A stretch of DNA of 64,000 nucleotides, from positions 1 to 64,000 of the forward strand of contig QHNH01000024.1 of assembly GCA_003218375.1 (NCBI GenBank), in the 5' to 3' direction. Source of the DNA: Verrucomicrobiota bacterium (GTDB lineage: Bacteria > Verrucomicrobiota > Verrucomicrobiia > Chthoniobacterales > UBA10450). A program made the position numbers and the translations under genes. The notes below the pieces were generated by a model, which saw only the letters and a list, made by a program, of their open reading frames with translations, did not search any database and had not been told where the DNA came from. This document shows positions 17,954 to 60,522 of the stretch, piece by piece. Numbering within the stretch: position 1 is the stretch's first letter; each line of letters opens with the position of its first letter.

Positions 17954-18049
17954 ATTGCAGATTTCAGATTGGAGAGTGCAGATTGAGCAGAGCCTCCTGC
18001 GAAGTCCCGCCCGACAATCGACAATCTGAAATCTGAAATCTACAATCCC
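17954..18049. repeat. Heptamer inverted-repeat element, GATTTCA type
   Basis: Left arm (about 17954-17993) contains GATTTCA and GATTGGA units. The right arm (about 18011-18049), read in reverse complement, contains GATTGTA, two GATTTCA and GATTGTC units, then a 4-base break. The element fills the gap between the response regulator and glnD, and its right end touches the GTG assigned as the glnD start. Confidence 0.75.
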
Positions 18050-18051
18050 AG

Positions 18052-20835
18052 GTGCCCGCTTCTCGTCATCTCGGAAAAGTCCTGGCGCATGCCCAGCGTG
18101 AGCTTGCCTCGGCTCGGACGATGCGGCCGGCGGATTCGCTCCCGCTCTACAAGAAGTTCCTGAAAATCGAAGAGCATCGCCTCCGTTTGCGCCATCAATA
18201 TGGCGGGGGCGGTCGTGAAATCTGCGCGCTCCGGGTCGAAATGATCGACGTGTTGTTGCGCTACATCTTCGAAGCCGCGGCCAGCGTCGGGAAAAAGGAG
18301 ATGTCCCCTACCCCGCTCACCGTCATCGCTCTCGGCGGTTATGGACGCCGGGAGCTCAATCCATTCAGCGACGTCGACATCATGTTCCTCCACGACAAGA
18401 ACCGGGGAAACATTTCGACTTACGCGACCCATGTCATCGAGCAGATCCTTTATTTGCTCTGGGACGTTGGATTCAAAGTCGGCCACTCCACCCGCTCGAT
18501 CGCGGAGGCCGTGGATCTGGCGAACAAGGACATGCTGACGAAGACCGCGATGCTCGAGTCGCGCCCGCTGTCGGGCGACTCGCATCTGGCGGCGCGATTC
18601 CGGACCGCCTTCCGGCAGCAATGTGTGCGCGGCCGGCAACGCGAATACGTGGAGCTGCGCATGCAGGACCAGGCGACGCGGCATGCGAAGTTCGGCAACA
18701 GCGTTTACGTGCAGGAACCGCATCTGAAAAGCGGCTGCGGCGGATTGCGCGATTACCAGAACCTGCTTTGGATGACGTTCTTCAAGGAAGGCGCGCTCAC
18801 CACGACCCACCTCGTCGGCAAGGATTGGCTGAGCGAGCCGGACCGCCGGCGAATCGAAGTCGCCTACGATTTTTTGCTTCGCCTCCGCACTGATCTCCAT
18901 TACGCGACCGGGCGCGCCACCGACACTCTCCATTTCAACGCCCAAGACCAGGTGGCCGAGCGGCTCGGTTATTCGCAAGAACGCGGCTCGCTCCGGAACG
19001 AGGCGCTCATGAAGGATTACTACGAGCACACCCGGAATATTTTTCGGGTCACCGAGCGCATCACGGAGCAGTTCGCCAGCGGCCGCGCTTCCTCCTCCAC
19101 GCGGTCCCTCTTCAGCTTCTTGCCGCGTCTGAAGTCGCCGGAAGAACGGCTCGGCCATTTCCGGATTCGGCAGGGACAACTCTTTGCCCAAAGCTCCGAC
19201 GTTTTCGAAGAGGCGCCGGAAGCGATGATGGAGGTCTTCGAAGTTGCGCAGCTTCGGCGGCTCGAGATGAGCCCGGATTTGTCCGACCTGTTTACTCGAA
19301 ATCTGGGACTGATCACGGGCACGTTCCGAGGTAGCAAAAAAACGCGGGAGATTTTCCAGCGGATCGTTTCGCGCAAAGGTGAGGTCGGCCGGGTGCTGCG
19401 GATGATGCACCGGGTGGATTTCCTCGGCCGTTACGTTCCGGAATTCGGACAGCTCACCTGCCTGGTGCAGCACGAATTTTTTCATCGCTACACCGCCGAC
19501 GAACACACCCTGGTGTGCATCGACAAGCTCGACCAGGTGATGGAGACGGAAGACCCGAAGCTGCGCTCCTACCGAGCACTCTTCGAGAAACTCGAGGACC
19601 CCTTTGTCCTCTATCTCGCGCTTCTCCTGCACGACACCGGCCGCGCGGTCGGCGCGCGTCCGCATTCCGAAGCGAGCGCACTCTTCGCCCAGGGGGCCGC
19701 GGCGCGTCTGCGACTCTCCGCGGCGCAACGGCGCTCGCTCGTATTGCTCGTGGACCATCACCTGACGCTTTCGAACATGGCGCAGCAACGGAACCTGGAC
19801 GATCCCGAGACGGCGGTGGAATTCGCGCGGATCGTGCGCGACCAACCGAACCTCGACGCCCTGATGCTGCTCACCCTCGCCGACGGCCAGGGCACGAGCG
19901 CCGATGCCTGGAGCGACTGGAAGGAGACATTGGTCTGGCAGCTTTACCATTCCACGTCGCAATATCTCTCCGACCAGGAAGCGTTCTACGAGCAGACGAA
20001 GATCGAGCGCGAACAATTGCAGGCGCGCGTGACGGAGAATCTCGGCTCCGAGTTTTCCGAAGAGGTCGAAGCCCATTTCGAAGTGATGCCGGACAATTAT
20101 TTCCGCGCCTTCACGACGGGCGAAATCGTCTCGCATCTGAGACTGTTCCGGCGCTTCCTGGAAAACTTATACCTGCGCGAGGAACCACCGCTCGCCCCGG
20201 CAGTCGCGTGGCAGGCGTTTCCCGAGCAGGGTCACAGCATCGCTTCGTTCTGCGCGTGGGATGGCCAGGAGCTGCTGGCGAAAATCGCCGGATCGTTCGC
20301 GGTCGTGCCCCTCAACATTTTGAGCGCCGACATTTACACTCGCGGCGACAACGTCGTCCTCGATATTTTTCGCGTCTGCGACCCGCGCTTCCGCGCCGTG
20401 ACCGACGAACGCGACCAGGCGCTGGTGGAATCGACGTTGCACTCCGCCCTCACCGACGAGCATTTCGATTTCGCGCCGTTGCTGGAACAGGCGCGGCGGC
20501 GAATCACGGGCCACAGCCGGCACGGCCTTGATTTTCCCACGAGGGTCACGGTCGAAAACAAGACGCACCCGGCCTACACCTTCGTCCAGATTCAAACGCC
20601 CGATCGCCTCGGGCTGCTCTACGAATTGCTCGCGGCGTTCGGCGAGGAAAACGTTTCCATCGCCCTGTCCCGCATCAGCACCGAAAAGGGCGCGGCGATC
20701 GACACTTTCTACGTCGCCGATCGCGGGACGCGGGCCAAGATCACCGATTCATCGCGGATCGCGGCGCTCCTCCAGCGATTGCAACACGCCGCCATCGGCA
20801 AAGCCGCCGAGCGCCATGGAGGCAAATCGCACTAG
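18052..20835 (+). CDS. glnD: Bifunctional PII uridylyltransferase/uridylyl-removing enzyme
   Basis: 927 residues from a GTG at 18052 (E. coli GlnD is about 890). The next in-frame start is an ATG at 18121, and either is possible because the upstream DNA is a repeat with no clear Shine-Dalgarno. The nucleotidyltransferase motif GGYGRRELNPFSDVDIMF carries the metal Asp pair D107/D109. The central HD hydrolase domain has HD at 527-528 in LLLHDTGR. C-terminal ACT domains bind glutamine; the last one (residues ~840-920) reads QTPDRLGLLYELL. The enzyme senses glutamine and uridylylates or deuridylylates PII proteins. No glnB or amt gene is in the window. Confidence 0.95.
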   Translation: MPASRHLGKVLAHAQRELASARTMRPADSLPLYKKFLKIEEHRLRLRHQYGGGGREICALRVEMIDVLLRYIFEAAASVGKKEMSPTPLTVIALGGYGRRELNPFSDVDIMFLHDKNRGNISTYATHVIEQILYLLWDVGFKVGHSTRSIAEAVDLANKDMLTKTAMLESRPLSGDSHLAARFRTAFRQQCVRGRQREYVELRMQDQATRHAKFGNSVYVQEPHLKSGCGGLRDYQNLLWMTFFKEGALTTTHLVGKDWLSEPDRRRIEVAYDFLLRLRTDLHYATGRATDTLHFNAQDQVAERLGYSQERGSLRNEALMKDYYEHTRNIFRVTERITEQFASGRASSSTRSLFSFLPRLKSPEERLGHFRIRQGQLFAQSSDVFEEAPEAMMEVFEVAQLRRLEMSPDLSDLFTRNLGLITGTFRGSKKTREIFQRIVSRKGEVGRVLRMMHRVDFLGRYVPEFGQLTCLVQHEFFHRYTADEHTLVCIDKLDQVMETEDPKLRSYRALFEKLEDPFVLYLALLLHDTGRAVGARPHSEASALFAQGAAARLRLSAAQRRSLVLLVDHHLTLSNMAQQRNLDDPETAVEFARIVRDQPNLDALMLLTLADGQGTSADAWSDWKETLVWQLYHSTSQYLSDQEAFYEQTKIEREQLQARVTENLGSEFSEEVEAHFEVMPDNYFRAFTTGEIVSHLRLFRRFLENLYLREEPPLAPAVAWQAFPEQGHSIASFCAWDGQELLAKIAGSFAVVPLNILSADIYTRGDNVVLDIFRVCDPRFRAVTDERDQALVESTLHSALTDEHFDFAPLLEQARRRITGHSRHGLDFPTRVTVENKTHPAYTFVQIQTPDRLGLLYELLAAFGEENVSIALSRISTEKGAAIDTFYVADRGTRAKITDSSRIAALLQRLQHAAIGKAAERHGGKSH

Positions 20836-20880
20836 CTGCGAGAAAATTTCGGTCTAGCTTCACCGCCGATTTCACCGTTC

Positions 20881-21633
20881 ATGAATGCGCTGATCCTTGC
20901 CGCCGGCTACGCCACCCGGCTCTATCCTTTGACCCAGACCAAAGCGAAACCACTGCTCGACGTCGCCGGCAAGCCGATGATCGATTGGGTGCTCGACAAT
21001 CTCGTCCCGGTTCCCGATCTGGAATGCGTTTACGTCGTCACGAATAACAAGTTTGTGAAGGATTTCCAAAGCTGGGCTGAGCAATACCGGAAGAAGAAAC
21101 CGAAGTTCGCGATCGAGATCACTGACGACGGATCGACCGACGATTCCGACAAGCTCGGCGCGATCGGAGATATTGTTCTCGTCGTTACCCGCCATGACCT
21201 GGCGAAGGACGACCTGATCGTCGTCGCCGGCGATAATTTATTTAGCGAACCATTGGACGATTTTGTGCGGGCCGCAAAAACTTCGGAGGCGACGCTCGCG
21301 ACGTATGACGTCGGCGATCTCGAGGCGATCAAGAAATACAGCAGCATCACGACCGATTCCGACGGCGTCATCACCTTGTTCGAAGAAAAGCCGGCCGAGC
21401 CGAAGAACTCCGTCGCCGGAATCGCGCTCTATTATTTTTCGCGTGAGCTGGTCCCGCTTTTCACGACCTACATCGCCGCCGGAAATAATCCAGACCAGCC
21501 GGGGCGCTTCATCCAGTGGCTTTACCAGCGTAAGCCCGTGAAGACGTATCCGATCAAAGGCACCTGGTTCGACATCGGCAGCAAAGAGACGCTCGAGGAA
21601 GCGAACCAGATCTTCGCGCGATTCGCGCGCTAA
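20881..21633 (+). CDS. Sugar-phosphate nucleotidyltransferase
   Basis: 250 residues with the N-terminal signature LAAGYATRLYPLT and KPLLDVAGKPM of glucose-1-phosphate thymidylyl/uridylyl/mannose-1-phosphate guanylyl transferases. VVAGDNLF provides the metal-binding Asp region. It lacks the C-terminal left-handed beta-helix of bifunctional enzymes. It would couple a sugar 1-phosphate to an NTP for cell-envelope sugars; the specific base and sugar cannot be read from the sequence. It lies 45 bases after glnD and may be cotranscribed. A palindrome 2 bases after the stop separates it from a convergent operon. Confidence 0.88.
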   Translation: MNALILAAGYATRLYPLTQTKAKPLLDVAGKPMIDWVLDNLVPVPDLECVYVVTNNKFVKDFQSWAEQYRKKKPKFAIEITDDGSTDDSDKLGAIGDIVLVVTRHDLAKDDLIVVAGDNLFSEPLDDFVRAAKTSEATLATYDVGDLEAIKKYSSITTDSDGVITLFEEKPAEPKNSVAGIALYYFSRELVPLFTTYIAAGNNPDQPGRFIQWLYQRKPVKTYPIKGTWFDIGSKETLEEANQIFARFAR

Positions 21634-21635
21634 CT

Positions 21636-21692
21636 GGAGGGACGCCCGCTGGGCGTCCCAAAAATAATGGGACGGACAGCGCCCGTCCCTCC
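21636..21692. terminator. Palindrome between convergent genes, GGAGGGACG family copy 2
   Basis: Outer arms GGAGGGACG and CGTCCCTCC bound two inner hairpins joined by cccaaaaataatggg. It fills almost the entire 60-base gap between two convergent stop codons, so a bidirectional terminator role is plausible. It belongs to the same family as 15611-15691 and 28930-28986. Confidence 0.7.
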
Positions 21693-21693
21693 G

Positions 21694-22113
21694 CTACTTC
21701 AATCTCCCCTCATCGAACTCGATGAGGTCGAAGTAGGTCCGAATATCTTTCCTTCCTGCGCCGCCAGCTTCTTTCAGGAAATGGACGAAGCGCGCTTTCT
21801 TCGCGGCGGTATCGGGATGGCGCGTGATCATCGTCGCGTTCCAATGCTCGATCGACTCGGGCGAATGTTTCGCGCCGTTCTTTTTTACCCAATCGAGAAT
21901 CGCGACGTCGTCATCCAGCTCATTCGCCACTTCCTCGAACTTGTCCGGATTCAGGCGGAGGAAAGCGAGCAAATGTTTGTCGAAGCCGACGGTCTTGTAG
22001 TTGTAACCGTCGAGCAGTCCTTTGCTATGCAATTTCGCCTTGTCGATCAAGCGTGGCAGATGCACGTATCCGCCCAACTTTTCGTAGGGACTGCGTGGAC
22101 GCAGCTTTTGCAT
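21694..22113 (-). CDS. DUF5069-family protein
   Basis: 139 residues. The N-terminal signature SPYEKLGGYVHLPRLIDKAK matches the DUF5069 pattern (SPRxxLGGxxxLPRxxDKxR) common in Verrucomicrobiota. Biochemical function is unknown. It starts 11 bases after the stop of the zinc-ribbon bactofilin and is probably the last gene of the four-gene minus-strand operon. No membrane segments or signal peptide. Confidence 0.8.
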   Translation of the reverse strand: MQKLRPRSPYEKLGGYVHLPRLIDKAKLHSKGLLDGYNYKTVGFDKHLLAFLRLNPDKFEEVANELDDDVAILDWVKKNGAKHSPESIEHWNATMITRHPDTAAKKARFVHFLKEAGGAGRKDIRTYFDLIEFDEGRLK

Positions 22114-22124
22114 CGAGCCCGACC

Positions 22125-22985
22125 TTAAGTCGCGGGCAATGGGTGCGGCACGGCGCCCGGCGCGATTTCCTCCGGCACCGCCGCTGGAGCTGGAACTGGC
22201 GCCGCCTCCGGCAGCAGCTCCGCCTGGGCGAGTCCGGACGTGCCGATGATCAACTGGCCCATGAAGATCCCGCCCTTCTCCACCGAAATCGATTTCGCGG
22301 TGACGTTGCCATCGAGGAGCGCATTCCGATGAATGATCACCGCGCCTTCCGCCACAATCTCCCCTGTCATTCTTCCGCGAATCTCAATGCTTTTGACCTG
22401 GAGCCGCCGAAAGAAATGCACGTCCGACTTGCGGTCGATGACGATGTTTTCCGCGATCAAGCGCCCCGGAATCTTGCCGACAAAATTGATCGTGGCCGTC
22501 CCGACACACTTCATGTTGCCGCGCATTTTTCCTTCGATCAACGCCGCCCGGCAGGTCACGGTGGTGCTGCTCAGGTCGCCTTTCGGCATAATGTGAATCT
22601 CGCCCTGGGTCTTGATCGAGCGGCTGAAGCTGGTGGTGATTTTGTAATCGCGCAGATCGATGTGCGTGCTGCACTTCGGGCAAAAGCTTGAACTGGCCGC
22701 GGAGCTGACTTCGTGTTTCGCCTTGCACTCGAAGCACTCGATCTCGGAATTGTGGTGCTTGGTCCAGAACCCTTCGATCTTTTGGAACAAGGAAGGATCG
22801 GTCGCGGCCGCCGCTTCCACGCGCTCCTCCTTGGGCCGCATCCGAATCTCATGCTTCGGCGCGGAGGGCGCGAAGTGCGAGCCGCATTGGCGGCACATCG
22901 TGCTCTTCGCCGCGGCATACTCCATCTGCTTAAAGCCACAGTGTGGACAATCCACACTGACTTTTGCAGGCGTCGGCTTTGCCAC
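22125..22985 (-). CDS. Bactofilin-like polymer-forming protein with two N-terminal zinc ribbons
   Basis: 286 residues. Two zinc-ribbon-like Cys pairs sit before the filament domain: CPHCGFKQ with CRQCGSH (about residues 13-36), and CFECKAK with CPKCSTH (about 80-110). The bactofilin right-handed beta-helix (about 120-255) shows regularly spaced Gly/Ile/Val repeats such as GEIHIMPKGDL and EIRGRMTGEIVAEG. The C-terminus is a Pro/Ala tail. Ordinary bactofilins are 120-200 residues without zinc ribbons, so this is an elaborated form. It lies 30 bases downstream of a canonical bactofilin, suggesting a joint cytoskeletal or envelope scaffold. Confidence 0.85.
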   Translation of the reverse strand: MAKPTPAKVSVDCPHCGFKQMEYAAAKSTMCRQCGSHFAPSAPKHEIRMRPKEERVEAAAATDPSLFQKIEGFWTKHHNSEIECFECKAKHEVSSAASSSFCPKCSTHIDLRDYKITTSFSRSIKTQGEIHIMPKGDLSSTTVTCRAALIEGKMRGNMKCVGTATINFVGKIPGRLIAENIVIDRKSDVHFFRRLQVKSIEIRGRMTGEIVAEGAVIIHRNALLDGNVTAKSISVEKGGIFMGQLIIGTSGLAQAELLPEAAPVPAPAAVPEEIAPGAVPHPLPAT

Positions 22986-23015
22986 GGGGCGGCTCGGGCG
23001 AAAGGTGACTGCTGC

Positions 23016-23588: not shown

Positions 23589-23619
23589 TATGCTGAGCGC
23601 CTCTCAGCCTGTCAACGGA

Positions 23620-25184: not shown

Positions 25185-25320
25185 AGTCGAAAATTCGAAG
25201 TGCGAATATCGAAACTCGAAACAAATTCAAAATGAGCAAGATCCCGAAGTTCTAAAATCTGGGACATTTCCGGGTTTCGAAATTGTCTCGGATTTCGAGC
25301 TTCGGATTTCGAATTTCAGC
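25185..25320. repeat. Heptamer inverted-repeat element, TTCGAA type
   Basis: The left arm (25185-25235) has AATTCGA, AGTGCGA, ATATCGA and AACTCGA, then the 4-base break AACA and AATTCAA. The right arm in reverse complement has AATTCGA, AATCCGA, AGCTCGA and AATCCGA, then the break GACA and ATTTCGA. Both arms therefore show four heptamers, a 4-base break, then more heptamers. The element lies between the STT3-like gene and tRNA-Ile2. Confidence 0.85.
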
Positions 25321-29291: not shown

Positions 29292-29404
29292 CGGAACATA
29301 GACCTCCGGTCTGTGCGCCCAACGGACATTCTGTCCGTTGTCCGTTCCTCGCAGTCAGCGGAGTGCAACTCCGCTGGGCGCACAGACTGGAAGTCTATGT
29401 TCCG
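29292..29404. repeat. Large palindrome, CGGAACATAGAC family copy 1
   Basis: Ends CGGAACATAGAC and GTCTATGTTCCG are inverted. Inside, CTGTGCGCCCA is mirrored by TGGGCGCACAG, and the loop has further small stems. A related element lies at 46681-46786. It occupies the divergent gap between the zinc-ribbon gene and the amidohydrolase, so it may overlap both promoters. Confidence 0.8.
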
Positions 29405-34688: not shown

Positions 34689-35828
34689 ATGCCGACACTC
34701 GCTACCACTGTTGATGGTCTTAAGCTGCCGAATCCATTTGTCATCGGATCGGGGCCGCCAGGAACGAATCTCAATGTCATCACGCGCGCCTTCCGCGAGG
34801 GCTGGGGCGCGGTCATCGCGAAGACCGTCAGCCTCGATGCCTCGAAGGTGGTCAACGTCGCGCCGCGTTATGCGAAACTGCACGCGAACGACCCGAAGGA
34901 CGTGATCGGCTGGGAAAACATCGAATTGATCAGCGATCGCAAGTTCGAGATTTGGCTGGATGAATTCAAGAAGTGCAAAGACCAGTTCCCGGACGGAATC
35001 CTGATCGCGTCGATCATGGAGGAATACAATCACGACGCGTGGACGGAAATCGTGGAGCGTTGCCAGGACGCGGGGATCGACTCGTTCGAGCTGAATTTCT
35101 CCTGCCCGCATGGATTGCCCGAGCGAAAAATGGGCGCGGCCATGGGCGAGAACCCGGAGATCGTCGAGGAGGTGGTCGGCTGGGTGATGGCGGCGGCGAA
35201 GAAACCGGTCTGGGCGAAGATGACGCCGAACGTGACCCGCATTACCGATCCAAGCCGGGCGGCGTTCCGCGGCGGCTGCCAGGGAGTGAGCGCGATCAAC
35301 ACCATCCGCAGCGTGATGGGAGTGAACCTCGATACCCTGCGGCCGGAGCCGACGGTGGAGGGCTTCACCACGCCCGGCGGTTATTCTTGCAGGGCCGTTC
35401 GGCCAATCGCGCTGCGGATGGTGATGGAAATCGCGACCATGATCCGGCGGGAATTTCCTGGTCGCACCCTTTCCGCCATTGGCGGAATCGAGAGCGGGGG
35501 CGACGCCGCGCAGTTCATCCTCCTGGGGGGTGACACGACGCAGGTTTGCACGGGCGTGATGAAGTTTGGCTACGAATGCGTGAAGCGCATGTGCGACGAA
35601 CTGCTCGCCTTCATGGAGAAGCACAAGTTCGAGACCATCGAAGATTTCAAAGGGAAGAGTCTCGATTATTTCACGACCCACGCGGAGCTGGTCCGGATGC
35701 AAGGGGAACGCAAAGCCAAGGACAAAGCCGCCGCCGAAGAAGCCGCCGCCAAGAAAATGGTGCGCGCCGACGATCAGTGGAGCGGCGATGAATTCGTGAA
35801 GCAATCGGATGCATTAGCTAGAAGCTAA
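34689..35828 (+). CDS. preA: Dihydropyrimidine dehydrogenase PreA-type subunit lacking the ferredoxin domain
   Basis: 379 residues with a strong Shine-Dalgarno (GAGGAGAA) 6 bases before the ATG. The FMN barrel shows NPFVIGSGPPGTN near the start, NFSCPHGLPERKMG (C139), MTPNVTRI, and SAINTIRSVMG followed by GGIESGGDAAQF. It would reduce uracil or thymine to the 5,6-dihydro form. E. coli PreA (~411 residues) ends in two 4Fe-4S clusters that take electrons from PreT. This protein ends in an Ala/Lys-rich helix with no Cys clusters, and no preT is in the window. The stop lies within the first bases of the heptamer element at 35829. Centre of the pyrimidine cluster. Confidence 0.9.
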   Translation: MPTLATTVDGLKLPNPFVIGSGPPGTNLNVITRAFREGWGAVIAKTVSLDASKVVNVAPRYAKLHANDPKDVIGWENIELISDRKFEIWLDEFKKCKDQFPDGILIASIMEEYNHDAWTEIVERCQDAGIDSFELNFSCPHGLPERKMGAAMGENPEIVEEVVGWVMAAAKKPVWAKMTPNVTRITDPSRAAFRGGCQGVSAINTIRSVMGVNLDTLRPEPTVEGFTTPGGYSCRAVRPIALRMVMEIATMIRREFPGRTLSAIGGIESGGDAAQFILLGGDTTQVCTGVMKFGYECVKRMCDELLAFMEKHKFETIEDFKGKSLDYFTTHAELVRMQGERKAKDKAAAEEAAAKKMVRADDQWSGDEFVKQSDALARS

Positions 35829-35900
35829 TGAAGCTCCAAACACCAAGCTCCAAGCTCCAGAGAAGCTCCAAATCGCAAGCTCCAAACAAGCACTCAAAAT
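35829..35900. repeat. Heptamer element A1, left arm (AGCTCCA type)
   Basis: Tandem heptamers AGCTCCA, AACACCA and so on: four units, the 4-base break GAGA, then AGCTCCA, AATCGCA and AGCTCCA. The right arm, 36317-36376, is inverted. Between them lies the four-helix-bundle gene. Confidence 0.9.
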
Positions 35901-35929
35901 ATTCCGCCGACGAGCGCACGTCGCGGGTG

Positions 35930-36304
35930 ATGGAGACGCCGAATAGCAACGGCAATGGGGCGAGCAGGCATCCGTTCGACTTGGAGGAGCGAACCGCATT
36001 GTTCGGCGAGGCGATTGTGCAATTCGCCAAGAAAATCCCACGCAGTCCGGCAAATGATCGGCTCGTTGGGCAGCTCGTCGGCTGCGGCACGAGCGTGGGA
36101 GCGAATTATTGTGAAGCGAACGAACGGGTATCAAAAAAGGATTTCCGCAACACTATCGGACGGTGCGTAAAAGAAGCGAAGGAAACGAAATACTTCCTTC
36201 GCCTGATTGCCGCCGCTGAGCCGCGACTAGCCGAAGAGGCCCGCGCCTTGTATCGTGAAGCCAAAGAGCTCCACCTGATCTTCGCCAGCATGTATCGTCA
36301 ATGA
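35930..36304 (+). CDS. Four-helix-bundle protein (S23 / 23S rRNA intervening-sequence, bAvd-like)
   Basis: 124 residues from the ATG at 35930. The longer frame to 35828 merely translates the heptamer repeat. Family hallmarks are present: HPFDLEERTALFGEAI, VGQLVGCGTSVGANYCEAN, then a helical second half (FRNTIGRCVKEAKETKYFL). Members of this family occur inside rRNA intervening sequences, in diversity-generating retroelements (Avd) and as stand-alone genes of unknown function. No reverse transcriptase or variable repeat is seen here. It is enclosed by inverted AGCTCCA heptamer arms, as if carried by the repeat, within the pyrimidine cluster between preA and mmsA. Confidence 0.88.
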   Translation: METPNSNGNGASRHPFDLEERTALFGEAIVQFAKKIPRSPANDRLVGQLVGCGTSVGANYCEANERVSKKDFRNTIGRCVKEAKETKYFLRLIAAAEPRLAEEARALYREAKELHLIFASMYRQ

Positions 36305-36316
36305 CACCGCGCCACG

Positions 36317-36376
36317 ATTTGAGGTTTGATGCTTGGAGCTTCTCTGGAGCTTGGTGCTTGGAGCTTGGAGCTTTTT
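36317..36376. repeat. Heptamer element A1, right arm (inverted)
   Basis: In reverse complement: AGCTCCA twice, AGCACCA, AGCTCCA, then GAGA, then AGCTCCA, AGCATCA and AACCTCA. This is the same 4x7 + 4 + 3x7 order as the left arm. The arm ends 2 bases before the mmsA ATG at 36378, so it covers that gene's ribosome-binding region. Confidence 0.9.
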
Positions 36377-37880: not shown

Positions 37881-38010
37881 GAAGCACCAAGCACCAAGCA
37901 CCAAGCTCCAGAGAAACATCAAGCATCAAACACCAATGCAGCGTCGCGGCCTTTGGAGCTTCGTTGTTTGGAGCTTCTCTGGTGCTTGGTGCTTGGTGCT
38001 TGGTGCTTTT
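37881..38010. repeat. Heptamer element A2 (AGCACCA type, empty)
   Basis: The left arm (37881-37935) has three AGCACCA, AGCTCCA, GAGA, AACATCA, AGCATCA and AACACCA. The right arm (about 37951-38010) in reverse complement has four AGCACCA, GAGA, AGCTCCA, AACAACG and AGCTCCA. The loop is only ~15 bases (gcagcgtcgcggcc). It fills the gap between mmsA and the hydantoinase and ends 6 bases before its ATG. Confidence 0.92.
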
Positions 38011-45771: not shown

Positions 45772-46688
45772 AGAAGAGGTTCGAAGCCGAAACCGGCCAG
45801 CAGTTCGCCGCCCGCAAGTATTTTCTGGATGCCTTCCTTGTCCTCGAAAGCACGCTGCTTGTGATGATCGGTCAGACCCCAGCACGGCTCGGCGCAAAGG
45901 AACGGGCCGCCGTCGGACCACAGCGTCAGATACGGCACGCCGGCCAAATCGAGGGCGACCGTTCGGCCTGAAGGCGGATCGGAAAAAGTAAATCCGCGAT
46001 CTGGAACATCGACCAATTCGAGAATGTAGGAGCCGGGAAGTTTTTCTCGTTCGAACGGCATCTGGCCACCGGCGAATTGAATGTCTTCGGTCTCGCCGCT
46101 GAGATAATTGTCGGGAGAAAAATGGCGGCGGTAAAGGCCGGCCGGCATTTCGAAGCGGAACGACTCGAACGACGTCGCGGCAAACCCGGGATGCAGACCG
46201 AACCCGACGTGCGCGGTCAGTTCCGGCTCGTGGTTCTTGAAGCGAAACGAAACCGAAACGCGCTCCGCTTCGATCCGGTAGGTTAGGTCGAGCGAAACCT
46301 GGAGCGGATATTCCGTCGCCGAAAAATCTTCCGGCGTGATGCGATAAGTCAGTTCGTCGTCGCGATTCGATTCGACGCGGTGCCAGATTTTCCCGCGCAG
46401 AAAACTGTGGGTCCCGCCGCGAATTTCCTGGCCGCGGTAGAGCGTGCGCTCGTTTTTGATCCGGTGGAGATAGTAGCCCATCACCGTCGCGTGGTTCGCC
46501 CAGCCTTTTTCAGGCGGAGCGGTCTCGTTGTCCCGATTTAGGAACCCGATCCAATCACCGCCCGCATTCCGCCGCGCGACACTGATCAGCTCTGCGCCCA
46601 GACGCGAAACGATGAGACGCACACCTTTCGCTTCGTCGGTCAGAATATCGAGGAGCCGGTCACCCCGCTGCTCTTCGTTTCGGAACAT
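45768..46688 (-). CDS. Aldose 1-epimerase family protein
   Basis: 306 residues with the mutarotase beta-sandwich signatures: LGAELISVARRN near the start, GGTHSFLRGKIW, VGFGLHPGF (catalytic His), and LTLWSDGGPFLCAEPCWGL (catalytic Glu) near the end. It interconverts sugar anomers or epimerises a related substrate. The ATG is itself part of the palindrome end (CGGAACAT) at 46681, so its first four codons come from the repeat. It is convergent with the damaged desaturase gene, overlapping it by 4 bases. Confidence 0.85.
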   Translation of the reverse strand: MFRNEEQRGDRLLDILTDEAKGVRLIVSRLGAELISVARRNAGGDWIGFLNRDNETAPPEKGWANHATVMGYYLHRIKNERTLYRGQEIRGGTHSFLRGKIWHRVESNRDDELTYRITPEDFSATEYPLQVSLDLTYRIEAERVSVSFRFKNHEPELTAHVGFGLHPGFAATSFESFRFEMPAGLYRRHFSPDNYLSGETEDIQFAGGQMPFEREKLPGSYILELVDVPDRGFTFSDPPSGRTVALDLAGVPYLTLWSDGGPFLCAEPCWGLTDHHKQRAFEDKEGIQKILAGGELLAGFGFEPLL

Positions 46689-46786
46689 AAGCCTCTGGCT
46701 TGTGCGCCCAGCGGAGTTTTACTCCGCTGCAAAACGGCAGCGGGCAGAATGCCCGCTGGGCGCACAGGCCAGAGGCCCATGTTCCG
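46681..46786. repeat. Large palindrome, CGGAACATA family copy 2
   Basis: Ends CGGAACATAAGCC and GGCCCATGTTCCG are inverted, with TGTGCGCCCAGCGG mirrored by CGCTGGGCGCACA. Two small hairpins occupy the loop. It is related to 29292-29404. It lies between the glutamate dehydrogenase stop and the aldose epimerase start and contributes the epimerase start codon. Confidence 0.85.
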
Positions 46787-49432: not shown

Positions 49433-49562
49433 AAGCTCCAAATTCCAAGCTCCAAGCTCCAGAGAAACTTCAAACAACGAAGCTCCAAAAGCGTCGCCGC
49501 TGGTTTGATGTTTGGTGCTTGGAGCTTCTCTGGTGCTTGGAGCTTGGTGCTTGGAGCTTTCC
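49433..49562. repeat. Heptamer element A3 (AGCTCCA type, empty)
   Basis: The left arm has AGCTCCA, AATTCCA, AGCTCCA, AGCTCCA, GAGA, AACTTCA and AACAACG. The right arm in reverse complement has AGCTCCA, AGCACCA, AGCTCCA, AGCACCA, GAGA, AGCTCCA, AGCACCA and AACATCA. The loop is ~17 bases (agcgtcgccgctgg). It lies between convergent genes. The architecture and GAGA break match A1 and A2. Confidence 0.92.
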
Positions 49563-51249: not shown

Positions 51250-51340
51250 CTCTTCTGTAGCCGTCGCCCTGTGGGCGACGTGAGAGTTGCGTTCGATGCG
51301 CTCCGCCACGTCGCCCACAGGGCGACGGCTACAGAAGAGG
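51250..51340. repeat. Palindrome of the TGTAGCCG family (two arms)
   Basis: The left arm 51250-51285 and right arm 51306-51340 are inverted copies of CTCTTCTGTAGCCGTCGCC plus the GTGGGCGACG stem. Each arm is itself a hairpin. It lies between murJ and the DUF2339 gene. A single unit of the same family is inside the protease gene at 28613. Confidence 0.85.
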
Positions 51341-55563: not shown

Positions 55564-55567
55564 AGGC

Positions 55568-55634
55568 GAGAATTGTGAATCGTGAGTCGCGTTAACAGGT
55601 AGTATTCCCCGATTCACGGTTCTCGATTCACGGC
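55568..55634. repeat. Heptamer inverted repeat, GTGAATC type
   Basis: The left arm has GAGAATT, GTGAATC and GTGAGTC. The right arm in reverse complement has GTGAATC, GAGAACC and GTGAATC, then GGGG. The right arm encodes the last residues and stop of the epimerase gene (NREP then TGA). It lies between two convergent stops. Confidence 0.75.
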
Positions 55635-56672
55635 TTCATGGATTTCCACCATGATCTCGCGCAGGCCGTAACGGAATTTCCATTCCGGATAATGCGCCTG
55701 GAACTTCCGGACATCGCTGATCCACCAAATATGGTCGCCGATCCGATTCGCTTCCTCGTATTTCCAAATTAAGCGCCGGCCGCTGATTTCCTCGCAGAGA
55801 TTGATCGCTTCCAGCATCGAGCAATTGCTGTGGCGGCTGCCGCCGATGTTGTAGACCTCCGCCACGCGCGGCGCGCGAATGAACGCGGCGAACGCGTCCA
55901 CGAGATCGGCGCTGTGAATATTATCGCGCACCTGTTTGCCGTTGTAACCGAAGACGCGGTAGGGCCGGCCGGTCACCGTGCAAATCATGAGATAGGAAAG
56001 AAACCCGTGGAGCTCGGCCCCGGCATGCGCTGGTCCGGTGAGGCAGCCGCCGCGGAAACAAACCGTCGGCATCCCGAAATAGCGGCCGTATTCCTGGACG
56101 AGAAGATCGGCGGCCGCTTTCGACGCGCCGAAGAGCGAGTGCTTCGTGTAATCGATGCTCATCGTCTCGGAGATGCCCGGCTCGTATTCGTGGCCCTCGG
56201 CGATCTCCCAGCGCAAGGGAAGTTCCCGCAACGGCAACCGGTTCGGCGTGTCGCCGTAGACTTTGTTCGTGGAAGTGAAAACGAAGGGCGCCTCCGGACA
56301 GCAGGCTCGCGCGGCCTCGAGCAGATTCAAGGTGCCGTTGGCATTCACCGTGAAATCGGTTTGCGGATCGCGCGCGGCCCAATCGTGGGAAGGCTGGGCC
56401 GCGGTATGAATCACGGCGGCGATCTCATTCCCCTGCGCCTGGAAAAGCGCGAGGACTTTTGGGGCATCGCGAATGTCGAGATCGTGATGTTCGTAATCGC
56501 GGACCGTTTGCACAAGTTCGTCCCGCGTTTTTTTGGTCGAGGCTTCCGGGCCGAAAAATTGACTCCGCATGTCGTTGTCGATCCCGATCACGCGATAGCC
56601 TTCGGCGGCGAAATGCCGGGCGCTTTCCGAACCGATCAGGCCGGCCGAGCCAGTAACGATAATTTTGCGCAT
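55614..56672 (-). CDS. NAD-dependent sugar-nucleotide epimerase/dehydratase (CDP-paratose 2-epimerase-like)
   Basis: 352 residues from the ATG at 56672; the frame is open to 56834 but without coding character. Rossmann motif [17 protein letters not shown]-type catalytic Ser/Thr with FTSTNKVYG, and [15 protein letters not shown] with Tyr/Lys. The overall pattern ([25 protein letters not shown]) resembles RfbE/CDP-paratose 2-epimerases of envelope polysaccharide synthesis. The final codons lie in a heptamer arm. It is followed upstream by pgl on the same strand, 32 bases away. Confidence 0.85.
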
Positions 56673-56704
56673 CGCCAGACTGAAAGCGGAAGTTGTGCCG
56701 GGAG

Positions 56705-57400
56705 TTACGCCTCGGCCAGGATCCAGGTTAGATCGCCATTCGCCGGAGCGACCCGGGCCGCGGGAAATTCCTGATCGCCCTCCAAAACTTTCTCGAGCAG
56801 CGACCGGTTCTTGTTCGCGTTCGCGAGAAAACAAACGTGCCGGGCCTGATTGATCAGCGGGTAGGTAAACGTGAGCCGCCAGGAATCGAATTTCGGAACG
56901 AAATTCGCGACGACCTTGCGGACTTTTTCCTCCAACGCCGCTGTTTCCGGAAACAACGATGCCGTGTGCCCGTCGTCACCCACGCCGAGCAAAATCAAAT
57001 CGTGCCGATACATCGTTTCCCCCCGTTCGGCCGCCAGGCGATCGAGCCCGTCCTGGTATTCCTGGGCGGCAACCTGCGGATCGATTTCGCCACGCATCCG
57101 GGCCACCGATTTTTCCGGGACCGCGCCCAGAACGAAAAGGGATTCGCGCGCCATCCGGTAGTTACTTTGCGGATCGTCCGGCGGCACGCAACGCTCGTCG
57201 CCGAAAGTGAAATGGACGCGGTCCCACGGAATGCCCCGGGCGATCCGGGCAAACTCGGTGTAAACGGGACGCGGCGTGTTCCCACCGGAAAGCGCAATGC
57301 GGAATTGATCCCGTTCGGCCAGCGCGGCCCGGGCGTGACGCAAAATAAACTCCGCGCCATCATGCACGAAATTCTGGGAGCGAACGACGTCGCGATTCAT
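56705..57400 (-). CDS. pgl: 6-phosphogluconolactonase
   Basis: 231 residues of the DevB/SOL type. [15 protein letters not shown] near the start, [21 protein letters not shown], and [15 protein letters not shown] with the catalytic His. It hydrolyses 6-phosphogluconolactone in the oxidative pentose-phosphate path. It lies between msrA and the sugar epimerase on the same strand. No zwf or gnd is in the window. Confidence 0.94.
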
Positions 57401-57415
57401 GCCGGGGGGCGCGGG

Positions 57416-57892
57416 CTAGATCGCGCAGTTCGACATGCCGCGCTTCTCGAGATAGCGCTGATGATAATCTTCCCCGCGATAAAAGGTTGGCGCCGGTTGG
57501 ATAAAAGTGACAATCGGCCGCTTGAATCGGCCGCTCTTCTCGAGGCGCGCCTTCGATGCTTCCGCCGCCGCCTCCTGCTCCGGCGAATGATAAAAAATGA
57601 CGGACCGGTATTGGTCGCCCACGTCGGGACCCTGGCGATTCAACGTGGTCGGATTGTGATTCGACCAGAAGACATCCAGAAGACGATCATAACTAACGAT
57701 CGCCGGATCGAACTCGACTTGGACGACTTCGGCGTGGCCGGTTGTGTGGCTGCAGACATCTTCGTAAGTCGGATTCTCGGTCGTGCCGCCGGCGTATCCG
57801 ACCGCGGCATCGATCACACCAGGGACGGCGCGGAACGTCGACTCGACCCCCCAAAAACAGCCGGCGCCAAATGTCGCTTTCTCTGTCGTCAT
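57416..57892 (-). CDS. msrA: Peptide-methionine (S)-S-oxide reductase
   Basis: 158 residues from the ATG at 57892. A longer frame to 58000 translates heptamer repeats and is rejected. The catalytic motif GAGCFWGVE is at the N-terminus, and [19 protein letters not shown] and [10 protein letters not shown] complete the MsrA fold. It repairs oxidised methionine. It lies 15 bases upstream of pgl. Confidence 0.95.
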
Positions 57893-57937
57893 GCGATCAC
57901 CATGAGACGGGGGAACGCCAGGCGCAAGGCCGCGAGG

Positions 57938-58073
57938 CGAAATGACGAAGCACGAATGACGAATGTCGAAACAATGACGAAGCACGAATGTCCGAATCAA
58001 TTCACGCAGCGTGGCCTTTTCCCTCGGTCATTCGGCATTCCTTCGTCCTTCGTCATTCGTCCTTCGTCATTTC
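57938..58073. repeat. Heptamer inverted-repeat element, GACGAAG type
   Basis: The left arm (57940-58000) has GACGAAG, CACGAAT, GACGAAT, GTCGAAA, the 4-base break CAAT, then GACGAAG, CACGAAT and GTCCGAA. The right arm (58020-58073) in reverse complement has GACGAAG, GACGAAT, GACGAAG, GACGAAG, GAAT, then GCCGAAT. This is the same 4x7 + 4 + n x7 layout as the AGCTCCA elements with unrelated units. It fills the fabG-msrA gap. Confidence 0.9.
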
Positions 58074-58075
58074 CC

Positions 58076-58819
58076 TCACATCACCATCCCGCCATCCACG
58101 GTCAACACCTGACCAGTAATGTATTTCGCTTCCGCCGAAGCGAGATAAGCAACCGCAGCGGCGATGTCCTCCGGCTCACCGAGTTTTCCCAGCGGGACGT
58201 TTTTCAAAATGTTCTGGCGCACTTCATCGGAAAGCACCGTGGTCATATCGGTCTCGATGAGTCCCGGAGCGACGGCGTTCACGGTGATCCCGCGGCTGGC
58301 CAGCTCGCGCGCGAGCGTTTTCGTGAGGCCGATCAACCCCGCCTTGCTCGCGGCGTAATTCGCCTGGCCGGCATTGCCGATCAAACCGGCGATCGAGCTG
58401 ATGTTGATGATCCGGCCGCTCCGCTGCTTGATCATCGGGCGCATCACGGCCTGGATAAAATTGAAAGCGCCTTTCAGGTTCGTGTTCAGGACCGTGTCCC
58501 AATCCTCCATCGACATCCGCATGCTGAGACCGTCGCGCGTCACGCCGGCATTGTTCACGAGAATGTCGACCCGCCCGAAATCTTCGAAAATCTTCTCGGC
58601 GGCTTTTTGGACCGCGGCCTGATCAGCGACGTCGACCGCGTAAGCTTTCGCCGCGTCAGCCCGCGCCGCATTAATTTCATCCGCGGTTTTCTGCGCGTTC
58701 GCTTCGGTGCGGCTGACGGAAGCGACACGCGCGCCGTCTTTCGCGAAACGAACGGCGATCGCGTGGCCGATGCCGCGGCCGGCTCCGGTCACAACCGCGA
58801 CCTGGTTTTCGAATCTCAT
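58076..58819 (-). CDS. fabG: 3-oxoacyl-[acyl-carrier-protein] reductase
   Basis: 247 residues, a classic short-chain dehydrogenase: cofactor motif VTGAGRGIGHAIA, NNAGVTRDG, catalytic Ser in ISSIAGLIGN and Y-x3-K in YAASKAG. It reduces beta-ketoacyl-ACP with NADPH in fatty-acid elongation. The length and start are standard. It lies downstream of holB on the same strand; no other fab gene is in the window. Confidence 0.93.
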   Translation of the reverse strand: MRFENQVAVVTGAGRGIGHAIAVRFAKDGARVASVSRTEANAQKTADEINAARADAAKAYAVDVADQAAVQKAAEKIFEDFGRVDILVNNAGVTRDGLSMRMSMEDWDTVLNTNLKGAFNFIQAVMRPMIKQRSGRIINISSIAGLIGNAGQANYAASKAGLIGLTKTLARELASRGITVNAVAPGLIETDMTTVLSDEVRQNILKNVPLGKLGEPEDIAAAVAYLASAEAKYITGQVLTVDGGMVM

Positions 58820-58858
58820 AAAGGTGTCATTCTGCGCACAGGCCGACGCGCGCTCAAA

Positions 58859-59830
58859 TCAAAAGGTAAAGACGCTGAGAAAGGCGACCTCGATGGCGAG
58901 CGCTTCCTGAATATTGCGGCCGAGATGGTCGCGCATTTCCTCGAGACGCCGAATGCGTCGCAAGATTTCGGACGTCTTCAGTCGCGAGGCCAGGTTTTCC
59001 GTTTGTTTCTTCGCCTTGGGAAGCTCGCGTCGCGCCACACTGGTGTTCGCGCGGAGCACGTCCGACCACCAGAGAAAAAGAATTTCCACCAGGCGCGCCC
59101 GCTGTCGGACATACTGACTTTCAGTGAGCGCTTTGTAGTAATCCTCGCGCTCGTCGAGCCAGGCGCCGTCGGTTGTGTTGCGATAACGCGCCTCGTCGCG
59201 CTTCAGCGCCGCGGCATTCTCTTCCTGGATCGCTTCCCGCAGCAGGGCGAGCAAACGATGGAAACCGCGCGCGAGCTGATAAGCCGGCTGGATCCCCTGC
59301 CCTTGGGCGCTCGCGACGTCACCGAGTAATTCCACCAGCTCGTTTTCCTCCGGCGAAGTTTTCTCTTTTTCGCTGGCCGCGAGCGGAACGGCGACGCAAC
59401 GCGACAGGATCGTGTCCGGCAACACTTCCGGCATCGAGCTGAGGAGGAGCAACAACGAGTCGTTAGGCGGTTCCTCGAGCGTCTTGAGAAATGCGTTCGC
59501 GGCCTGGGGTTGGAGGCGGTCGGCGTCCGCGATGATCGCGATTTTGCGATGGCCGTTGGCGCTCCGCATCTGGAGCGCGTGCTCGAGGGCGCGCACCTGG
59601 TCGATCACGATCCGGCGTGATTTTGATTCCGGTTCGGCCAGGTAGACGCCGGGTGGCGGCGAAGCGAAAACGTCCGCGGACTTAGCGCCAGAAAGCAGAT
59701 TCGAGAGGTCCGACGCCAGGCCGCGCTTGCCGCTGCCGGGCGGACCGGAAATCAAATAGGCGTGGCCGAGCCGCCCGCGTTGGTGGGCCCGGCTCAAGTA
59801 TTCGAACGCTCCGGTGCGGGTGAAAGCCAT
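58859..59830 (-). CDS. holB: DNA polymerase III delta-prime subunit
   Basis: 323 residues from the ATG at 59830; the extension to 59914 overlaps tmk and a repeat. AAA+ clamp-loader features: AYLISGPPGSGKRGLA, then IIADADRLQPQAANAFLKTLEEPP, characteristic of delta-prime, and LSRC in the sensor region. It loads the sliding clamp. The ATG is 2 bases after the tmk stop, and the tmk-holB order is common in bacteria. Confidence 0.93.
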   Translation of the reverse strand: MAFTRTGAFEYLSRAHQRGRLGHAYLISGPPGSGKRGLASDLSNLLSGAKSADVFASPPPGVYLAEPESKSRRIVIDQVRALEHALQMRSANGHRKIAIIADADRLQPQAANAFLKTLEEPPNDSLLLLLSSMPEVLPDTILSRCVAVPLAASEKEKTSPEENELVELLGDVASAQGQGIQPAYQLARGFHRLLALLREAIQEENAAALKRDEARYRNTTDGAWLDEREDYYKALTESQYVRQRARLVEILFLWWSDVLRANTSVARRELPKAKKQTENLASRLKTSEILRRIRRLEEMRDHLGRNIQEALAIEVAFLSVFTF

Positions 59831-59832
59831 GG

Positions 59833-60522
59833 CTACATTTTCGATTTTGGATTTTCGATTTTCGATTGCGGATGGGATGCGAAGGCGGAAAGCCGAGTCG
59901 GAAGCGCGTTCCAAATTTCGCTCTCGATGGCGTCGGGCGATTGGCGGCCGTCGACCACGATGAAGCGATCCGGCTCGCGAGTGGCGAGGGCTCGGTAGCC
60001 TTCACAGACGCGCTCGTAGAATTCGTCCGGCTCTTGTTCCATCCGATCGTGGACCGCGACCGGGCGAACGCGTCGCAGCATCCGGGCGCGAGCGGTCTCG
60101 ACGTCGATGTCGAGGATGAACGTCACGTCAGGACGGGCGGCGCCAACGGCGAAGGCATTGAGGGTCTCGACAATTTCCGGAGGGAGTTTGCGCGCCACGC
60201 CTTGATAGACGGTGGTCGAATCGAAGAAGCGGTCGGAAATCACAAACGTGCCCTGGGCGAGTGCCGGTTGAATCGTTTCGCGCACGAGCTGGCTGCGGCT
60301 GGCCGAGAAAAGCAACACCTCGGTCTCCGGCGTCATCGCGAAACTTTCCGGAGCGAACTGGAGAAGGTCGCGAATTTTTTCGCCGATGGCCGTGCCGCCG
60401 GGCTCGCGAGTAACGAGCGTGCGCACACCGGCCTGTTCGAGCCGGGCGGCGAGACGGAGAACCTGGGTCGATTTTCCGCAGCCTTCCGAGCCTTCGAATG
60501 TGATAAACGCGCCGCGCGGCAT
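59833..60522 (-). CDS. tmk: Thymidylate kinase
   Basis: 229 residues. P-loop FEGSEGCGKSTQ, DR-x motif SDRFFDSTTVYQG, and TREPGGTAIGE. It phosphorylates dTMP to dTDP. The usual length is ~205-215; the extra C-terminus (SKIENPKSKM) is encoded by a heptamer repeat arm (59836-59870), so repeat DNA has become coding. The TAG stop is just beyond the arm. It is divergent from the EVE-domain gene. Confidence 0.94.
   Translation of the reverse strand: MPRGAFITFEGSEGCGKSTQVLRLAARLEQAGVRTLVTREPGGTAIGEKIRDLLQFAPESFAMTPETEVLLFSASRSQLVRETIQPALAQGTFVISDRFFDSTTVYQGVARKLPPEIVETLNAFAVGAARPDVTFILDIDVETARARMLRRVRPVAVHDRMEQEPDEFYERVCEGYRALATREPDRFIVVDGRQSPDAIESEIWNALPTRLSAFASHPQSKIENPKSKM
59836..59870. repeat. 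Single heptamer arm, GAAAATC type, inside tmk
   Basis: On the minus strand: CGCAATC, GAAAATC, GAAAATC, CAAAATC and GAAAATG, then the tmk stop. No inverted partner is visible nearby. It forms the tmk C-terminal tail and lies up to the holB start. Confidence 0.65.

What the first reader, a model, noticed from the sequence alone, without database searches (positions are those of the whole stretch)
17954..59870. A class of intergenic elements: inverted arms of tandem heptamers with one architecture and unrelated unit sequences
Seen directly: elements at 17954-18049 (GATTTCA), 25185-25320 (TTCGAA register), 35829-36376, 37881-38010 and 49433-49562 (AGCTCCA/AGCACCA), 55568-55634 (GTGAATC) and 57938-58073 (GACGAAG), plus a single arm at 59836-59870. 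In the better-preserved arms I can parse (all AGCTCCA arms, both GACGAAG arms, both TTCGAA arms) the order is four heptamers, a 4-nt break (GAGA, CAAT/GAAT, AACA/GACA), then two or three heptamers, with the partner arm inverted. The GATTTCA and GTGAATC arms fit less fully. Heptameric tandem repeats are known in cyanobacteria (STRRs), but a fixed 4x7+4+3x7 inverted layout shared by unrelated unit sequences would be odd for ordinary decay. It suggests the layout itself is selected or produced, for example by a protein reading one helical face every 7 bases or by copying of a structured hairpin.
Basis: partly seen in the sequence, partly recalled or inferred. Interest (0 to 1): 0.85.

Follow-up and report, generated by a model that had tools for sequence, protein, structure and literature searches.

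The report
Small mobile elements ended by heptamer arrays
The odd inverted seven-letter repeats are the two ends of a widespread, seemingly undescribed kind of small bacterial DNA element whose only gene makes a four-helix 'IVP/S23' protein, and each protein lineage keeps its own repeat word, which suggests that the protein reads the word.

Summary
The arms are real and far beyond chance. They are the ends of small elements whose only gene is a four-helix-bundle 23S_rRNA_IVP/S23 protein (PF05635/TIGR02436). One full copy lies in the window: gene 35930-36304 inside the AGCTCC arms 35831-36373. The other window elements are gene-less, with units of IVP genes elsewhere in the same genome. Across a genus and about a dozen phyla, IVP genes sit between inverted arrays of 6-8-nt units: both arms periodic at 75 of 137 loci against 2 of 131 control windows; inverted-repeat score 30 or more at 101 against 0. 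Unit sequence follows the protein even where silent sites are saturated, so protein and word appear paired. A blind test held once: the one genome in 369 with Xanthomonas-type (GGGAATC)3 arrays has one IVP gene, with GGGAATC arms; a relative with 91-98% identical flanks lacks that element, its operon intact. The '4x7+4+3x7' layout belongs to a few related lineages; most arms are plain, 4-5 units. I infer a mobile element whose ends the IVP ring reads unit by unit. Binding and the cutting enzyme are not shown.

The parts
17954..18050 (.). gene-less element; inverted arms of GATTTCA units (arms 17954-17985 and 18010-18050), same unit as the arms of the IVP gene at G000:C47 (L009)
25191..25317. 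gene-less element; TTCGAAA (AAnnnCG) units, layout 4x7+4+2x7 in both arms; unit type of the IVP gene L010 (assigned by eye, below the array threshold)
35831..36373 (+). complete element: inverted AGCTCC/AGCACC (AAnnnCC) arms around an IVP gene
35831..35862 (+). left outer arm: four AAnnnCC units plus AGAG
35930..36304 (+). IVP / S23 four-helix-bundle protein gene (PF05635 45.9 bits over cut-off 33.8; TIGR02436 61.7 bits over 24, scored on ORF 35828-36301). The longer ORF 35828-36304 starts inside the arm; ATG 35930 is the likelier start (my reading)
36342..36373 (-). right outer arm (inverted): CTCT plus four units
37882..38008 (.). gene-less AGCACC/AGCTCC element, 4+4+2-3 layout in both arms
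49433..49559 (.). gene-less AGCTCC element just after a stop codon; no AGCTCC element at this place in the 7 congeners looked at
55568..55634 (.). short gene-less element, GTGAATC units; unit type of the IVP gene L003 (assigned by eye)
57941..58073 (.). gene-less element, GACGAAT/GACGAAG (AAnnnCG) units, 4+4+3 and 4+4+2; unit of the IVP gene L013
59833..59875 (.). single arm of TCGATTTT units, no good inverted partner in the 1.5 kb on either side; unit of the IVP gene L007

Best explanation
These are the inverted ends of a family of small mobile elements ('IVP elements'). A full copy is about half a kilobase (543 bp in the window, about 470 in G572): an array of usually four or five near-identical 6-8-nt units, one IVP/S23 gene, and the same array inverted. 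Gene-less copies keep the two arms and a short middle and, I infer, spread with help from the resident IVP protein. The IVP protein (a four-helix bundle; one relative is described as a pentameric ring) recognises the unit of its own lineage. That pairing keeps the unit constant while silent sequence drifts, and lets several IVP families with different words live in one genome. Shown: the association, the unit-protein covariation beyond neutral expectation, gene-less copies with resident units, an occupied/empty site pair, spread of one family in one species. Inferred: physical binding, one unit per ring subunit, whether DNA or RNA is read, and that an enzyme encoded elsewhere cuts and joins, since IVP has no known catalytic domain. 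Rivals 2 and 3 below overlap with this reading in part.
For: IVP genes flanked by inverted arrays: 75 of 137 loci have both arms periodic, against 2 of 131 windows 850-1100 nt away; inverted-repeat score 30 or more at 101 of 137 against 0 of 131 such windows and 12 of 137 mismatched partners. Genus census, all 73 matches of 8 genomes: 61 of the 72 with full flanks score 30 or more. PIN-domain genes of the same genus: 0 of 29 score 30, 2 of 29 have one periodic side. Plasmid loci 17 of 17, family of G572 23 of 29. Own genome: 11 of 13 upstream flanks score 31 or more with their own downstream flank. Unit similarity rises with protein identity (Mantel r 0.33, none of 2000 permutations as high) where fourfold silent sites are near chance. 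Unit length changes 11 times on the tree against 18.3 on average in 200 shuffles, minimum 15. Gene-less arrays: 40 of 61 match a resident IVP unit at 0.75 or more; mean best 0.80 against 0.67 for equal-sized decoy sets. Blind test, one case: 1 of 369 genomes has (GGGAATC)3 and its one IVP gene has GGGAATC arms. Empty site in G638. Spread: 66 exact AGCTCC arms in G000, backward pattern 0; five places in G001, one 26-nt match in G005, none listed in five other congeners.
Against: No transposition, binding or transcription data. No target-site duplication in 15 elements. IVP has no recognised nuclease or recombinase domain and the genome has no RVT_1 reverse transcriptase, so the moving step is unexplained. 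11 of 72 genus loci score under 30, and two that score above (L255 34, L258 38) belong with L257 (20) to a paralogue without periodic arms. In the own genome L002 and L011 do not match their own partner, and L011's upstream flank fits L004's arm (37). The only Pirellulaceae locus analysed (L104) has no clear arms. One plasmid locus (L184) has inverted arms that are not heptameric. The word test in Lamprocystis was not clean: the backward control gave 3 hits there and a Pontibacter genome with a different IVP word gave 13. In one search the backward control of the GGGAATC pattern hit one genome (G360, 6 times). The congener matches (15 more arrays) had no equal-sized decoy. The correlation is moderate and many tree forks are unresolved.
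Confidence: 0.72

Rival explanations
1. Ordinary heptamer microsatellites (STRR/SSR) that grow by replication slippage; the inverted pairs and nearby IVP genes are incidental.
For: Array length differs between near-identical Planktothrix plasmids (six against four AATCCCC units), and a few arrays are long (up to 22 units).
Against: Arms are paired and inverted around a specific gene family, controls are nearly empty, unit number peaks at 4-5 (154 of 228 arms), and 0 of 30 AGCTCC arms have a fifth unit outside the four (the search pattern required four units and AGAG).
Confidence: 0.04
2. RNA-level element like the 23S rRNA intervening sequence: the arms fold in the transcript, RNase III cuts the insert out, and the IVP protein binds the RNA. 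Movement, if any, goes through RNA.
For: Same protein family as the rRNA IVS; the Coxiella IVS has three GACAGAT heptamers upstream of the S23p ORF and is excised by RNase III (PMC4990558, passages read); elements often lie at the stop codon of a neighbouring gene and, in G572, inside an operon.
Against: No stem covariation in 15 AGCTCC elements (6.02 against 6.03 of 7); no RVT_1 in this genome.
Confidence: 0.3
3. The arms are moved by an unrelated transposase (for example a Y1/RAYT-type enzyme) and the IVP gene is a passenger or a regulator binding its own flanks.
For: 12 Y1_Tnp matches in the genome; no target-site duplication, as recalled for Y1-type elements.
Against: Unit identity follows the IVP protein across phyla, so IVP is more than a passenger. 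I did not test whether Y1 genes have similar arms.
Confidence: 0.3
4. Not mobile: an old, vertically inherited gene with operator-like repeats that regulates neighbouring genes.
For: The copy between the same two genes as in G572 is also seen in 3 of the 10 relatives' loci printed.
Against: Many paralogous copies with different words in one genome (13 matches), absence at that site in a relative with 91-98% identical flanks, AGCTCC copies spread in one species of eight, presence on plasmids.
Confidence: 0.1

Closest known systems
23S rRNA intervening sequences (IVS) with an S23p/IVP gene (Leptospira, Coxiella)
   Same: Same protein family; a 428-nt element in Coxiella with the gene in it; inverted repeats; tandem heptamers before the gene in Coxiella (PMC4990558, passages)
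   Different: Those sit in rRNA genes; these lie between protein genes on chromosomes and plasmids, with gene-less copies and lineage-specific words
Heptameric repeats GGGAATC (Xanthomonas) and GGGGA(C/T)T (Nostoc/Anabaena), PMC4692102
   Same: Same units, mostly intergenic, 70 and 75 inverted pairs in two Xanthomonas strains; here such units bracket IVP genes
   Different: That paper studied them as G-quadruplex repeats; my text searches found no 'S23' or 'four helix' in it
TAACTGA direct repeats of Beggiatoaceae, cyanobacteria and Bacteroidetes (PMC4679880)
   Same: Intergenic heptamer arrays of patchy distribution; [quoted passage not shown]
   Different: Nearly all single direct arrays there; not tested here for IVP genes
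REP/BIME elements with RAYT transposases; MITEs (recalled)
   Same: Small intergenic inverted elements, with gene-less copies depending on a resident protein
   Different: The protein is a four-helix bundle without a known catalytic domain; the ends are arrays of 6-8-mers
Avd of diversity-generating retroelements (PDB 4dwl, 8ube)
   Same: Fold: Foldseek probability 1.00, TM-score about 0.60; PF05635 is said to resemble Avd in PMC10053308 (passages)
   Different: No reverse transcriptase of family RVT_1 in this genome

Membership tests
23S_rRNA_IVP / TIGR02436 four helix bundle protein | Profile score over the curated cut-off | tested here: met
   PF05635 45.9 bits (cut-off 33.8); TIGR02436 61.7 (cut-off 24)
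23S_rRNA_IVP / TIGR02436 four helix bundle protein | Four-helix fold like 2gsc and 2rld | tested here: met
   AlphaFold model pLDDT 91.9, four helices; Foldseek 2rld E 1.1e-5, 2gsc E 2.4e-3, both probability 1.00
23S rRNA intervening sequence | Lies inside a 23S rRNA gene | tested here: not met
   Rfam finds only a tRNA in the window; the copy at 35831-36373 lies between long ORFs
23S rRNA intervening sequence | Excised from the transcript by RNase III | not testable with these tools
   no RNA data
MITE / IS-derived element | Terminal inverted repeats with fixed ends, many copies | tested here: met
   15 AGCTCC elements (two share a right arm); 0 of 30 arms with a fifth unit; 66 exact arms in the genome
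MITE / IS-derived element | Target-site duplication | tested here: not met
   0 of 15 at k 4-6; k=3: 1 against 0.29 expected
MITE / IS-derived element | Parent element encodes a transposase | tested here: not met
   the gene between full arms is an IVP; only PF05635 is found in it
STRR (cyanobacterial short tandem repeats) | Direct heptamer arrays | tested here: met
   the name STRR and its heptamers are recalled, no STRR sequence was seen in a call
REP/RAYT | Resident RAYT next to cognate repeats | not tested
   12 Y1_Tnp matches exist, their flanks were not analysed
Diversity-generating retroelement | Reverse transcriptase present | tested here: not met
   0 RVT_1 matches in a 97.8% complete genome

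The most novel reading that the evidence does not exclude
IVP proteins are ring-shaped readers in which each subunit holds one 6-8-nt word, so that ring geometry sets the repeat length and a few residues set the word. Bacteria across a dozen phyla thus carry an evolving protein-to-word code that drives a hitherto unnamed class of mobile elements, and the scattered published heptamer repeats are its footprints.
Probability: 0.4. Interest if true: 0.93.

Novelty: categorically new. Interest (0 to 1): 0.88.

Why it matters
It offers a single cause for heptamer repeats that were reported separately in Xanthomonas and Nostoc, and perhaps Beggiatoaceae, and left unexplained, and a genomic context for a common bacterial protein family of unknown function (131 of 194 sampled genomes of this phylum carry one over the cut-off). 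It turns the old question of what S23/IVP proteins do into a direct binding test. A family of small proteins that has evolved dozens of cognate 6-8-letter words would also be a natural source of programmable nucleic-acid readers. I know of no described class with these parts. In the listings and passages that I saw from ten searches of the open-access library, the only link between such a gene and heptamers is the Coxiella rRNA insert (PMC4990558); none describes inverted heptamer arms as the ends of IVP genes. Subscription papers are mostly missing from that library.

Tried and rejected
Considered and dropped: replication slippage as sole cause; hairpin pairing as the selected feature (no covariation); reverse transcription by an RVT_1 enzyme in this genome; a layout universal to all units; target-site duplications. 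Led nowhere: viral contigs with the window protein (no relative); near-identical plasmids with and without an element (three Planktothrix records, all with it); the site 49433 as a clean empty site (relatives hold other palindromes or differ too much); the word test in Lamprocystis as a specificity test (see evidence against); Rfam (only a tRNA).

Rows dropped before counts: loci with less than 250 nt on a side (6 of 80, 5 of 39 of the genus set then held, 1 of 30 phylum loci), and for its control windows those with less than 1100 nt (131 of 137 left), 1 of 73 without full flanks, 4 loci with stops in the matched stretch, 4 short ones, and those without full flanks (137 left, of which 114 had a strong array), the arrays that belong to IVP loci themselves (6 of 67), and IVPs without a usable seven-base arm (10 own and 45 congener IVPs were used), 1 of 30 PIN loci and 1 of 30 loci of the G572 family. 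Of 24 plasmid records I fetched 17. The L070-L149 loci are the best 80 of at least 576, so they lean towards relatives of the query; the phylum loci (L150-L179) lean towards the best PF05635 scores. One search listed only part of its matches and I printed ten relatives' loci.
Full report
WHAT IS THERE. In 464 kb of this genome I found 67 such arrays at lag 7, a mean of 0.6 after shuffling triplets, and none at lags 4, 5 or 10.

THE MISSED GENE. The largest element, 35831-36373, holds an ORF that is a 23S_rRNA_IVP / four helix bundle protein. The genome has 13 PF05635 matches; none of 14 control genomes has any. Printing their flanks showed inverted arrays around nearly all of them, each with its own word, among them TTCAGGA, GTGAATC, GATGAAG, GTAGGAA, ATTCCGA, TCGATTT, an octamer, GATTTCA, TTCGAAA, AGCTCCA and GACGAAT (words read by eye). 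Aligning each upstream flank with each reversed downstream flank gave scores of 31 or more for 11 of 13 own pairs, against an off-diagonal mean of 19 and a 95th percentile of 25. The highest off-diagonal values are 63 (L002 up with L003 down, not followed up) and 37 (L011 up with L004 down, both GATGAAG by eye). L002, at a contig end with a stretch of N, and L011 do not match their own partner.

HOW GENERAL. Of 73 PF05635 matches in the eight genomes of the genus, 72 have full flanks; 61 of these score 30 or more and 62 have at least one strong array. Two of the 61 (L255, L258) belong to a paralogue without arrays. The 850-1100 nt control windows, mismatched partners and PIN-domain genes of the genus do not behave so. 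Loci from records labelled Verrucomicrobia, Acidobacteria, Chloroflexi groups, Bacteroidetes groups, Ignavibacteria, Gamma- and Deltaproteobacteria, Hydrogenedentota, Bipolaricaulota and Candidatus Magasanikbacteria and plasmids of cyanobacteria, Treponema, Bernardetia and Chlorohelix give the same picture; the one Pirellulaceae locus analysed (L104) does not. 37 of 74 genome-contig loci have both arms periodic with the same period, and 17 of 17 plasmid loci score 30 or more, one of them with arms that are not heptameric. Seven is the usual unit length, but 14 of 114 loci with a strong array have 8 and 5 have 6, and length follows the protein tree (11 changes, mean of 200 shuffles 18.3, minimum 15).

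PROTEIN AND WORD BELONG TOGETHER. Among 95 loci with seven-base units, similarity of the unit rises with protein identity (r 0.33, highest of 2000 permutations 0.17). The key control is: at 50-65% protein identity fourfold silent sites are 0.275-0.307 identical, close to chance (0.258-0.282) and to distant pairs (0.275-0.283), so neutral sequence has lost its memory, yet unit similarity is 0.54-0.63 against 0.48-0.51 for pairs under 50%. Common descent without constraint does not explain that well. Clades that span phyla share a word, for example GGAATGC in records labelled Desulfococcaceae, Deltaproteobacteria, Verrucomicrobia and Prosthecobacter. In 15 AGCTCC elements units facing each other in a hairpin are no more alike than others, so the word, not base pairing, seems to be kept.

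GENE-LESS COPIES AND SPREAD. Of 61 arrays outside IVP loci, 40 have a best match of 0.75 or more to a resident IVP's unit; equal-sized decoy sets from other phyla give a mean best of 0.67 against 0.80, and 35 arrays beat all 30 decoy draws. Fifteen more match a congener's unit, for which no equal-sized decoy was run. Of the window's gene-less elements, the GATTTCA, AGCTCC, GACGAAG and single-arm ones are mapped; the TTCGAA and GTGAATC ones fell below the array threshold and are assigned by eye. The AGCTCC family has 66 exact arms in this genome, backward pattern 0, five places in G001, one 26-nt match in G005 and none listed in five other congeners. Fifteen full copies in the DNA I held, two of them sharing a right arm, show four outer units, AGAG, inner units and a middle of 60-67 nt in 13, 126 in the overlapping case and 479 where the IVP gene sits; none of 30 arms has a fifth outer unit and there is no target-site duplication (the pattern required four units and AGAG). 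In Lamprocystis purpurea the IVP's own word also occurs as two gene-less inverted pairs, but the backward control gave 3 hits there and a Pontibacter genome with another IVP word gave 13 hits, nine of them in one array, so that test was not clean.

A BLIND TEST AND AN EMPTY SITE. Xanthomonas GGGAATC repeats were published without an explanation (PMC4692102; passages read). I searched 369 genomes of the class of Lamprocystis for (GGGAATC)3: one, G572, has it; the backward pattern hit one other genome. G572 has exactly one PF05635 match, and that gene's arms are CGGGAATCGGCAATGGGGAATCGGGAAT and CGGGAATCGGGAATGGGGAGTAGGGAAT. This is one case. In its family 29 of 78 sampled genomes have a match; of 29 loci analysed 23 score 30 or more, and several have GGGAATC, GGGATTC or GGGACTC arms. 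The G572 copy lies between two genes that I read as accB and accC (recalled motifs, not from a call). In G638, whose flanks are 91% and 98% identical, the same two stretches are 13 nt apart instead of 470. Of the ten relatives' loci printed, three carry the element, six (G638 included) have a short spacer and one (G653) a longer spacer without arms.

Four units, a four-base break and two or three units are seen in both arms of the gene-less AGCTCC, GACGAAG and TTCGAA elements and of the L012 element, and in the left arm of L010; L013's own arms are irregular. All these words are AAnnnCG or AAnnnCC. L010 and L012 share a supported branch with L057, whose AACGCC arms have no break; L013 was too short for the tree and is placed by eye. 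The other loci parsed (21 in all) mostly have one block of 4-6 units, some with a stray or degenerate unit. Over 114 loci 154 of 228 arms have 4 or 5 units. By arithmetic, 28+4 bases is about three turns of B-DNA, so the break could put the second block back on the same face; I did not test this.

HOW IT MAY WORK. AlphaFold gives a four-helix bundle (pLDDT 91.9) that matches 2rld, 2gsc (XCC0516 of Xanthomonas campestris) and Avd (4dwl, 8ube). The X. campestris S23p is described as a homopentameric toroid (PMC4990558, passage). A ring whose subunits each hold one word would explain a unit length set by the protein and a modal number of units near ring size; this is inference. Since IVP has no known catalytic domain and the genome has no RVT_1, an enzyme encoded elsewhere should cut and join; Y1 transposases are present but untested. 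Elements tend to sit at gene ends: of 94 strong arms in genome-contig loci, 65 have the stop of a long ORF within 60 nt, 35 of these within 10 nt (no control was run).

RELATION TO KNOWN THINGS. The nearest relative is the 23S rRNA intervening sequence; the Coxiella IVS even has three GACAGAT heptamers before its S23p gene. I take the rRNA IVS to be a special case of this wider class, which is why I call the class new and not the protein. Only four papers of the open library name the family by the terms; I read passages of three, saw the fourth only in the listing, and none of those passages speaks of the arms.

LIMITS. Association and covariation are strong; binding, movement and the level (DNA or RNA) are inferred. 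Samples are biased towards good matches. Tree forks on 113 columns are weak, and the Mantel test treats loci as exchangeable.

Noticed in passing
L180, L262, L265 (cyanobacterial plasmids): IVP elements sit beside or between cas genes (between cas2 and cas1 in L262 and L265; between csx2 and cas1 in L180). The '23S rRNA IVP' named in a figure legend on CRISPR adaptation associations in PMC10910872 (passage) may partly be such insertions.
   Followed up: partly
L182, L187, L269: IVP genes between genes annotated as DISARM, restriction-modification, helicase or DNA methylase, co-oriented with them.
   Followed up: no
L255, L257, L258: A conserved IVP-like paralogue (ELLSFQKARIV...) in three congeners without periodic arms; perhaps a domesticated copy.
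   Followed up: no
window 29292-29404 and 46681-46786: Two copies of another inverted element (CGGAACATA...TATGTTCCG arms), not heptameric.
   Followed up: no
window 15609-15693, 21636-21692, 51250-51339: Further palindromic elements with GGGACG or GTCGCC arms, one with perfect 33-nt arms.
   Followed up: no
L189, L190, L192, L193: At the place of the 49433 element, four congeners hold another palindrome family (TGTCATCCCGAGC...); the spacer between these genes may be a hot spot for small inverted elements.
   Followed up: no
L202:574-9251: A dense cluster of heptamer arrays of several words (GGAAGTAGAAATTA, AATAACC, GAGGATG) within 9 kb.
   Followed up: no
L184 (Nostoc sp. UHCC 0870 plasmid): IVP gene with strong inverted arms (score 85) that are not heptamer arrays.
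   Followed up: no
L182 and L270: Arms made of two words in series (AATCCCC then AATCGTA) with different unit numbers in plasmids 97% identical.
   Followed up: partly
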